Below are positions 59,047 to 60,416 of a DNA stretch of 64,000 bases, piece after piece; positions within the stretch are counted from its first letter, which is position 1; every line of letters starts with the position of its first letter. The notes under the pieces are model-generated. The model made no database searches. It was not told where the DNA came from and saw nothing but the letters and a program-made list of their open reading frames with translations. Position numbers and translations under genes: made by a program. The stretch is taken from NCBI RefSeq assembly GCF_030246845.1, contig NZ_CP126889.1:186001-250000 (forward strand), in the 5' to 3' direction. This DNA comes from Enhydrobacter sp. GTDB lineage: Bacteria; Pseudomonadota; Alphaproteobacteria; Reyranellales; Reyranellaceae.

Positions 59047-59068
59047 GTGTCATCCCGAGCGCAGCGAG
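59047..59068. repeat. Left fragment of a GTGTCATCC palindrome split by the IS
   Basis: GTGTCATCCCGAGCGCAGCGAG, after which the sequence changes abruptly at 59069. Its continuation is found at 60361, on the other side of the IS110-family element. Confidence 0.92.
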
Positions 59069-59215
59069 CAACTGTGATGTTGAGGTAGCCCGGTGATCGT
59101 TCGGGCTCAAGGCAGGCGCTATGCGCCTCCGCCTTCGGCGGCTGCGGCCTTGACCCCGCCCGCTCACCGGGCTGATCGGCTTTCAGGCCGTCGGCGCGGA
59201 GCGCCGACGGCGGGC

Positions 59216-60169
59216 TCAGGCGATGGCGTGTTTGACTGGGTCCCATGTCTGGGAGCGCTGCAGCATGGTGTTGAGGATGCCGATCAGCTTGCGCATGCAG
59301 GCGATCAAGGCGACCTTGGGCTTCTTGCCCCTGGCGCGCAGCCGCTGGTAGTGGGCCTTGAGCACCGGATTGTGCTGGATGGCGCTGAGGATCGGCATGT
59401 ACAGCAGCGTGCGCAGCTTGCGACGCCCGCCCTGAATATGGCGTTGGCCGCGCCGCTCACCGCTGTCGTCGGCGAAGGGCGCCACCCCGAGCAAGGCGGC
59501 CGCGGCCTGGCGGTCGACGCGGCCGAGCTCGGGCAGCAAGGCGATCAGGCCGGCAACCGCCGCGTCGCCCAGCCCCGGCACGCTGTGGAGGATCTCGGCC
59601 TGCCGCGCGAAGCGCTCGACCGTGGCGATCCTGGCGGCGATGACGGCCTCGAGCTTGGCCAGCTGAGCGCCCACCGCCTCGAGCAGCGCCTGATGGATCT
59701 TGCGCACCGCCTTGGGCTGCTCGTGCTCATTCCAGCTCTCGATCTGCCCCTTCAGCCGCACCATGCCGAGACGGGCCGTGACCAGCTGGTCGAGTTCCTG
59801 GCGCTCCTCGTCCCGGGCCTGGCCGGTAAGATCCTCGAATACCTCGCCGAACCAGGCGATCATGCGGGCGTCGATGGCATCGGTCTTGGCCCGCTGTCCG
59901 GCCGACCGGGCGAAGTGGCGCACCCGCTGGGGGTCGACGATCACCACTGCCAGCCCAGCCTCGCGCAACAGGCCGGCCCAGCTCCTCTCGTAGCCGCCGC
60001 TGGCCTCCATCACCGCCGTGGCGACGCCATGTTCGGCCAGCCACTCCAGCAGCCGCCGACGCCCCGCGGCGTCATGGGCGAACGACGCTTCCGCGCCCGC
60101 CGACCGGATCGCCGCATCGATCTTTCCCTTGGCAATGTCGAGGCCGACAAGCGTCCGCTTCTGTGTCAT
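59216..60169 (-). CDS. IS110-family transposase (bridge-RNA recombinase type)
   Basis: 317 residues. The N-terminal RuvC-like DEDD domain begins VGLDIAKGKIDAAI and includes AVMEASGGYERSWAGLL and KTDAIDARMIAWFGE. After a coiled-coil middle comes the C-terminal Transposase_20 domain (LHSVPGLGDAAVAGLIALLP, RRKLRTLLYMPILSAIQHNP) with its conserved Ser region near YMPILSA. It appears full length and intact. GGAGACGGAGG precedes ATG 60169. An in-frame extension to 60445 crosses the IS end and is not part of the gene. Confidence 0.95.
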   Translation of the reverse strand: MTQKRTLVGLDIAKGKIDAAIRSAGAEASFAHDAAGRRRLLEWLAEHGVATAVMEASGGYERSWAGLLREAGLAVVIVDPQRVRHFARSAGQRAKTDAIDARMIAWFGEVFEDLTGQARDEERQELDQLVTARLGMVRLKGQIESWNEHEQPKAVRKIHQALLEAVGAQLAKLEAVIAARIATVERFARQAEILHSVPGLGDAAVAGLIALLPELGRVDRQAAAALLGVAPFADDSGERRGQRHIQGGRRKLRTLLYMPILSAIQHNPVLKAHYQRLRARGKKPKVALIACMRKLIGILNTMLQRSQTWDPVKHAIA

Positions 60170-60345
60170 CCTCCGTCTCCCTTCCTTGCTCGTCCGGGCT
60201 TCGCGCCCAGGCAACTGTTCGGGTTTAAGGAAGACACCGGCCCTGGCCCTCGCTCGCTGGCAGGCTCTTGCCTTAGGGATCTCCGGGCTCAGGGCCGGCG
60301 ACGGGCGGCTGCTCAAACGGCCGCCCGTTCGCTTATTCTCGCAAA
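60170..60345 (-). ncRNA. Predicted bridge RNA of the IS110-family element
   Basis: Read on the minus strand: a 5' stem-loop (ACGGGCGGC/GCCGCCCGT, 60301-60328), then a loop closed by CCGGCCCTG-A-GCCC with GGGC-CAGGGCCGG (60298-60285 and 60249-60237). This loop contains AGATCCCT (60282-60275), identical to the target's left side plus CT core, and AGCGAG (60254-60249), complementary to CTCGCT on its right side. A second loop, closed by CTTCCTT/AAGGAAG, contains ACAGTTGC (60218-60211), matching the element's own end next to the core, and CAAG (60188-60185), complementary to CTTG at the other end. The order of stem-loop, target loop, donor loop is that of IS621. Ends are approximate and folding was done by eye. 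Confidence 0.75.
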
Positions 60346-60360
60346 TCACAAAGACACAAG

Positions 60361-60416
60361 GGATCTTTGGCTGGCGCCGATCAAGGATCCCTCGCTCGCT
60401 TCGCTCGGGATGACAC
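60361..60416. repeat. Right fragment of the GTGTCATCC palindrome split by the IS
   Basis: GGATCTTTGGCTGGCGCCGA followed by TCAAGGATCCCTCGCTCGCT and CGGGATGACAC. It completes the left fragment at 59047-59068. The bases after it (CCCATTTTGCAGCAGGTAGC) match the flank of the copies at 7833 and 40428. Confidence 0.92.

What the first reader, a model, noticed from the sequence alone, without database searches (positions are those of the whole stretch)
59047..60416. IS110-family element inserted into a dispersed palindrome, with a readable bridge RNA whose guides match that palindrome
Seen: excising 59069-60360 restores a complete repeat, and both junctions carry AG (CT on the transposase strand). 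In the roughly 190-base region before the transposase, one stem-closed loop holds AGATCCCT (same as the target left half plus core) and AGCGAG (complement of CTCGCT, core plus right half). The next loop holds ACAGTTGC (same as the element's end plus one core base) and CAAG (complement of CTTG at the other end). Known: IS621 uses a bridge RNA with target and donor loops, a CT core, and REP elements as targets. Inferred: this element is programmed for the host's commonest intergenic repeat, giving many mostly harmless landing sites. The repeat family and the guide-target match appear undescribed for this lineage.
Basis: partly seen in the sequence, partly recalled or inferred. Interest (0 to 1): 0.82.

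Follow-up and report, generated by a model that had tools for sequence, protein, structure and literature searches.

The report
RNA-guided jumping gene in repeats
A small mobile DNA element of the IS110 family carries its own guide RNA, whose target guides match a short palindromic repeat scattered through this bacterium's genome, and all three copies of the element sit at that exact site; it is a clear new example of a mechanism described in 2024 rather than a new mechanism.

Summary
Window 59069-60360 is a 1,292-bp IS110-group element (317-aa IS621-like DEDD recombinase, minus strand) whose 191-nt left end folds as a bridge RNA. The genome holds three 100%-identical copies, all at AAAGATCC-CT-CGCTG[C/T]G in a dispersed ~78-bp palindrome. 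Guides LTG AGATCCCT, RTG CAGCGAG and LDG ACAGTTGC match target and donor; the RDG match is only CAAG. The guide-specified 13-mer occurs 81 times exactly in the genome, against 0 for the reversed control. In relatives (51-59% aa), each element's guides match its own flanks: 0 of 20,000 permutations reach the observed score on either side, and the match peaks at zero offset. The donor loop stays constant while target guides change. REP-targeting IS110 elements (IS621, ISPpu9, ISRm19) are known, so this is a new member of a known kind. Two by-products may be newer: the clade's right end carries a covarying ~95-nt structured RNA that also occurs outside IS110 elements, and Rfam sX15 appears to be the antisense strand of an IS110 bridge RNA.

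The parts
59069..60360 (-). IS110-group insertion sequence, 1,292 bp, including one copy of the CT core (AG on the + strand)
   Evidence: three identical copies with these ends
59216..60169 (-). DEDD recombinase (transposase), 317 aa
   Evidence: PF01548 and PF02371; IS621 and ISCro4 in the PDB
60170..60360 (-). left end with the predicted bridge RNA
   Evidence: fold z -4.1; structure shared by 26 elements
60275..60282 (-). left target guide AGATCCCT
   Evidence: equals LT plus core; relatives' guides match their own flanks
60253..60259 (-). right target guide CAGCGAG
   Evidence: reverse complement of CT-CGCTG
60211..60218 (-). left donor guide ACAGTTGC
   Evidence: equals the right end ACAGTTG plus one core base; nearly invariant in relatives
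60185..60188 (-). right donor guide CAAG
   Evidence: reverse complement of CTTG at the left end; only 4 contiguous bases
60335..60340 (-). candidate -10 box GAGAAT; with TTGCTT formed across the joined ends and a 17-nt spacer it makes a junction promoter in the circle
   Evidence: sequence only; inference by analogy with IS621
59087..59179 (-). conserved ~95-nt three-way-junction RNA in the right end, role unknown
   Evidence: covariation, G-U against A-C asymmetry, model R1 95 bits
59047..59068 (+). one part of the interrupted palindrome (right target side)
60361..60416 (+). other part of the interrupted palindrome (left target side)

Best explanation
An IS110-group insertion sequence that moves as a circle under the guidance of its own bridge RNA. 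Shown here: the recombinase family, the exact ends, three identical copies at one target, and guide-target matching that holds across relatives with different guides. Inferred from IS621: on excision the two ends join at the CT core and rebuild a promoter; this makes a bridge RNA from the left end; its first loop pairs with both strands of the target AGATCC-CT-CGCTG and its second loop with the circle junction ACAGTTG-CT-TGTG; the recombinase then exchanges strands at CT. Because the guides spell the inner arm of the host's dispersed palindrome, the element has about 80 exact landing sites in this genome. Relatives keep the donor loop and change the target loop.
For: three copies, one target; recombinase; fold; guide-flank match against permuted and slid controls; abundant target; relatives re-aimed, one class at a Bradyrhizobium dispersed repeat.
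Against: The right donor guide matches only 4 contiguous bases. Few bridge-RNA pairs vary, so structural covariation of the left end is modest. No RNA, circle or activity data. Permutation treats related elements as independent. Right-hand matches are poor in some relatives (2-4 of 8).
Confidence: 0.93

Rival explanations
1. The recombinase protein itself recognises the palindrome by sequence or shape, and the guide matches are incidental.
For: All three copies lie in the palindrome family.
Against: Relatives insert at several unrelated sequences, each matching its own guide, with the match confined to zero offset. One copy has palindrome sequence on one side only, with just AAAGATCC on the other.
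Confidence: 0.03
2. The palindrome halves are the element's own terminal repeats, carried along with it.
For: The element is always found between such halves in this genome.
Against: The palindrome arm occurs about 295 times, nearly always without the element. Relatives have other flanks, and flank letters differ between the three copies.
Confidence: 0.01
3. The three copies are one insertion spread by segmental duplication or homologous recombination, so they are not three independent tests of targeting.
For: The copies are 100% identical and all lie at 27-276 kb of the contig.
Against: Flanks beyond the palindrome differ between copies, and the third departs right after AAAGATCC. Target sites are dense there: 19 of 74 listed lie in the first 272 kb.
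Confidence: 0.05

Closest known systems
IS621 (Escherichia coli; PMC11208160, PDB 8wt6)
   Same: DEDD plus Transposase_20 recombinase, left-end bridge RNA with target and donor loops, CT core, insertion in REP sequences
   Different: Different guides and repeat; low overall protein identity; this clade has a conserved structured right end
ISPpu9 (Pseudomonas putida; PMC8450116)
   Same: IS110 family, identical copies at one position of a REP, AG at both junctions, upstream and downstream non-coding RNAs
   Different: ISPpu9's downstream Ssr9 is a separate ~180-nt RNA flanked by A and B boxes; the structure here shows no such boxes, and no transcript is known
ISRm19 (Sinorhizobium meliloti; PMC1525189)
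   Same: IS110 element inserted in REP sequences of an alphaproteobacterium
   Different: Not compared by sequence here; different REP family
ISEc21 and other seekRNA elements (PMC11187229)
   Same: Same mechanism class, an RNA from the non-coding region choosing the target
   Different: ISEc21's transposase is longer (358 aa); its guides differ

Membership tests
[quoted passage not shown]
   PF01548 8.5e-22 and PF02371 1.1e-16; D, E, D, D and SG aligned with IS621
IS110 group (IS621-like) | Long non-coding left end encoding a bridge RNA with target and donor loops | tested here: met
   191-nt left end, three-stem fold, guides in both loops
IS110 group (IS621-like) | Guides match both strands of target and donor, core included | tested here: met
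   LTG 8, RTG 7, LDG 8, RDG 4 bases; control tests
IS110 group (IS621-like) | Scarless insertion at a dinucleotide core | tested here: met
   CT at both junctions of all three copies; excision restores the repeat
IS110 group (IS621-like) | Circular intermediate with a promoter rebuilt across the junction | not testable with these tools
   Only a candidate TTGCTT-N17-GAGAAT was seen in the sequence
IS110 group (IS621-like) | Right end shorter than left end | tested here: met
   147 against 191 nt, but the right end is unusually long and structured
IS1111 group | Sub-terminal inverted repeats of 7-17 bp and bridge RNA in the right end | tested here: not met
   By eye at most 6 bp (ATCACA/TGTGAT) beside the junction, and the guides lie in the left end
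REP sequence (the target palindrome) | Short, dispersed, imperfect palindrome in many copies | tested here: met
   295 arms against 2 in the control; ~78-bp unit
REP sequence (the target palindrome) | Association with a RAYT (Y1 transposase) gene, as for some REP families | tested here: not met
   Two Y1_Tnp genes in the genome; no palindrome core within about 1.5 kb of either
REP sequence (the target palindrome) | Intergenic location | not tested
   No gene calls were made for the whole genome

The most novel reading that the evidence does not exclude
This IS110 clade carries a second functional RNA: the covarying three-way-junction RNA in its right end, which also occurs outside IS110 elements in Bradyrhizobium, takes part in transposition or in control of the recombinase or the bridge RNA.
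Probability: 0.35. Interest if true: 0.6.

Novelty: new member of a known kind. Interest (0 to 1): 0.42.

Why it matters
It gives a compact (317-aa) natural bridge recombinase whose target guides can be read directly and checked against three insertions and about 80 open sites in one genome. Its clade is a natural reprogramming series, with a constant donor and donor loop and changing target guides, some of them aimed at dispersed repeats, so guide rules can be tested on natural pairs. The conserved right-end RNA, and an Rfam sRNA family that appears antisense to a bridge RNA, raise the question of how bridge RNAs are regulated.

Tried and rejected
Rfam has no family that matches the sense strand of the left end; its two hits there are on the opposite strand. 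Of these, BjrC68 (29 bits, threshold 39) I judge a GC-rich hairpin coincidence. Sense similarity of right end to left end was weak: 15 of 500 shuffles scored as well. No T-run follows the right-end structure, so I do not read it as an intrinsic terminator. RAYT linkage of the palindrome was looked for and not found. The repeat sequence was searched for in papers and not found. The order-wide search added no relatives beyond the genus.

Full report
WHAT IS THERE. The minus strand of 59069-60360 holds a 317-aa protein (59216-60169) with PF01548 and PF02371. Among solved structures it matches only ISCro4 (3e-30) and IS621 (6e-28), with the catalytic D, E, D, D and the SG motif aligned. The host is probably Reyranella: genome G049, of the same genus as the window's genome, holds the same sequence as locus L052, whose record is titled 'Reyranella sp.' MAG. 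This is inferred, not stated by a tool.

COPIES AND TARGET. The genome has three copies, identical over all 1,292 bases. On the transposase strand each reads AAAGATCC | CT-element-CT | CGCTG[C/T]G. Two interrupt full palindromes. The third has palindrome sequence on one side and only AAAGATCC on the other, so AAAGATCC-CT-CGCTG appears to be enough. The arm GTCATCCCGAGCGNAGCGAG occurs 295 times at up to 2 mismatches, against 2 for the reversed control. The guide-specified 13-mer AGATCCCTCGCTG occurs 81 times exactly (74 of them are listed) and 198 times at up to 1 mismatch, against 3. Most other genomes of the genus have 0-10 exact copies; the highest other count is 55.

BRIDGE RNA. The left end folds at -94.7 kcal/mol, z -4.1: a 5' stem-loop, a loop holding LTG AGATCCCT and RTG CAGCGAG on either side of a small inner hairpin, and a loop holding LDG ACAGTTGC and RDG CAAG. 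Alignment of 26 elements gives the same architecture: 97.3% of cells pair, against 32-44% when the partners are slid. Few pairs vary, so structural covariation is modest. G-U cells outnumber A-C cells 74 to 17, as expected if this strand is the RNA. In the circle, TTGCTT-N17-GAGAAT would be assembled across the core, a candidate promoter as in IS621 (PMC11208160); this is inference.

TEST ACROSS RELATIVES. The element ends ACAGTTG-CT and CT-TGTGTC and the donor loop are nearly invariant, while target guides differ. LTG-flank identity averages 7.29 of 9 against 5.33 when pairs are permuted, and RTG-flank 5.65 of 8 against 4.39; 0 of 20,000 permutations reach either value. Because relatedness inflates such tests, the flanks were also slid: the left match is 7.36 at offset 0 and mostly 4-5 beyond offset 4; the right match is 5.67 at offset 0 and 3.0 or less elsewhere. 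Guides fall into several classes (TTCGTGCTC, TTGCGCCC, TAACGCCCC, AGATCCCT, others), each matching its own flank. Many flanks of the first class share a sequence that is dispersed in Bradyrhizobium: 17, 44 and 10 copies in three genomes, 1 in the window's genome. So this clade appears to have been naturally re-aimed several times, in at least two cases at a host repeat.

CHANCE. Dinucleotide shuffles of the left end reached a combined guide match of 14 or more in 23 of 20,000; observed 15.

RIGHT END. The clade's right end holds a ~95-nt three-way-junction structure. Ten of the pairs counted over the right end are changed on both sides, with none of 500 shuffles as good on any measure, and G-U cells outnumber A-C cells 34 to 4, pointing to a sense-strand RNA. 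Model R1 scores 92-103 bits in the clade members searched; in the IS110 elements below about 45% identity the best score was 26 bits. It also occurs at 96-104 bits in Bradyrhizobium loci without the recombinase or the donor sequence (L136, L137, L139, L147), and at 41-72 bits in other solo places. Its role is unknown. The seekRNA paper notes that 26 listed IS110/IS1111 elements have two long non-coding regions (PMC11187229), so a long right end by itself is not new.

ANTISENSE. Rfam sX15 (RF02234) matches the opposite strand of the bridge RNA here (41 bits, below its threshold of 55). At a full-score sX15 locus in Xanthomonas hortorum (L123 1950-2108, 151 bits) the opposite strand contains CCCGAACAGTTGC, lies directly upstream of a decayed frame that begins MNGIGIDVCKAKL, and aligns in part with the bridge RNAs. 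ISPpu9's Asr9 is likewise antisense to the tnp 5'-UTR (PMC8450116). I infer that sX15 is an Asr9-type RNA, antisense to an IS110 bridge RNA; the strand of sX15 is as given by Rfam and was not checked against its original report.

VERDICT. REP-targeting IS110 elements are known from E. coli, Pseudomonas and Sinorhizobium (PMC1525189), so this is a new member of a known kind. The right-end RNA is the part most worth following.

Noticed in passing
window 59087-59179 (minus); L136, L137, L139, L147 near position 1524 of the oriented locus: Conserved, covarying ~95-nt three-way-junction RNA in the right end of this IS110 clade; the same structure occurs in Bradyrhizobium without the recombinase, joined to a sequence common on rhizobial plasmids.
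   Followed up: partly
L123 1950-2108; window 60175-60311 (+): Rfam family sX15 (RF02234) appears to be the antisense strand of an IS110 bridge RNA, with the same layout as Asr9 of ISPpu9.
   Followed up: partly
genome G000 contig C1: Exact target sites cluster: 19 and 13 of 74 listed sites lie in the first and last 272-kb bins, and 16 at about 3.0-3.8 Mb; all three IS copies are at 27-276 kb.
   Followed up: partly
L141, L142, L143, L144, L146 around 1400-1650: Stand-alone Bradyrhizobium repeats with a GTCAAGGC...GCCTTGA three-way junction inside a longer hairpin ending in CCATGATCGCATGG-like arms; no Rfam family was found in the two of them that were searched, L141 and L144.
   Followed up: no
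L127 around 1440-1660: A right-end remnant without recombinase in the same genus (ends ACAGTTG-CT), lying in a different dispersed palindrome.
   Followed up: no
L067-L074 and L093 (Planctomycetes bacterium syqfu): Nine near-identical IS110 relatives (40% aa identity) in one genome; the five upstream flanks read all end in [C/T]GCG[C/T] before CTTGTAAG, a possible set for testing guide tolerance.
   Followed up: no
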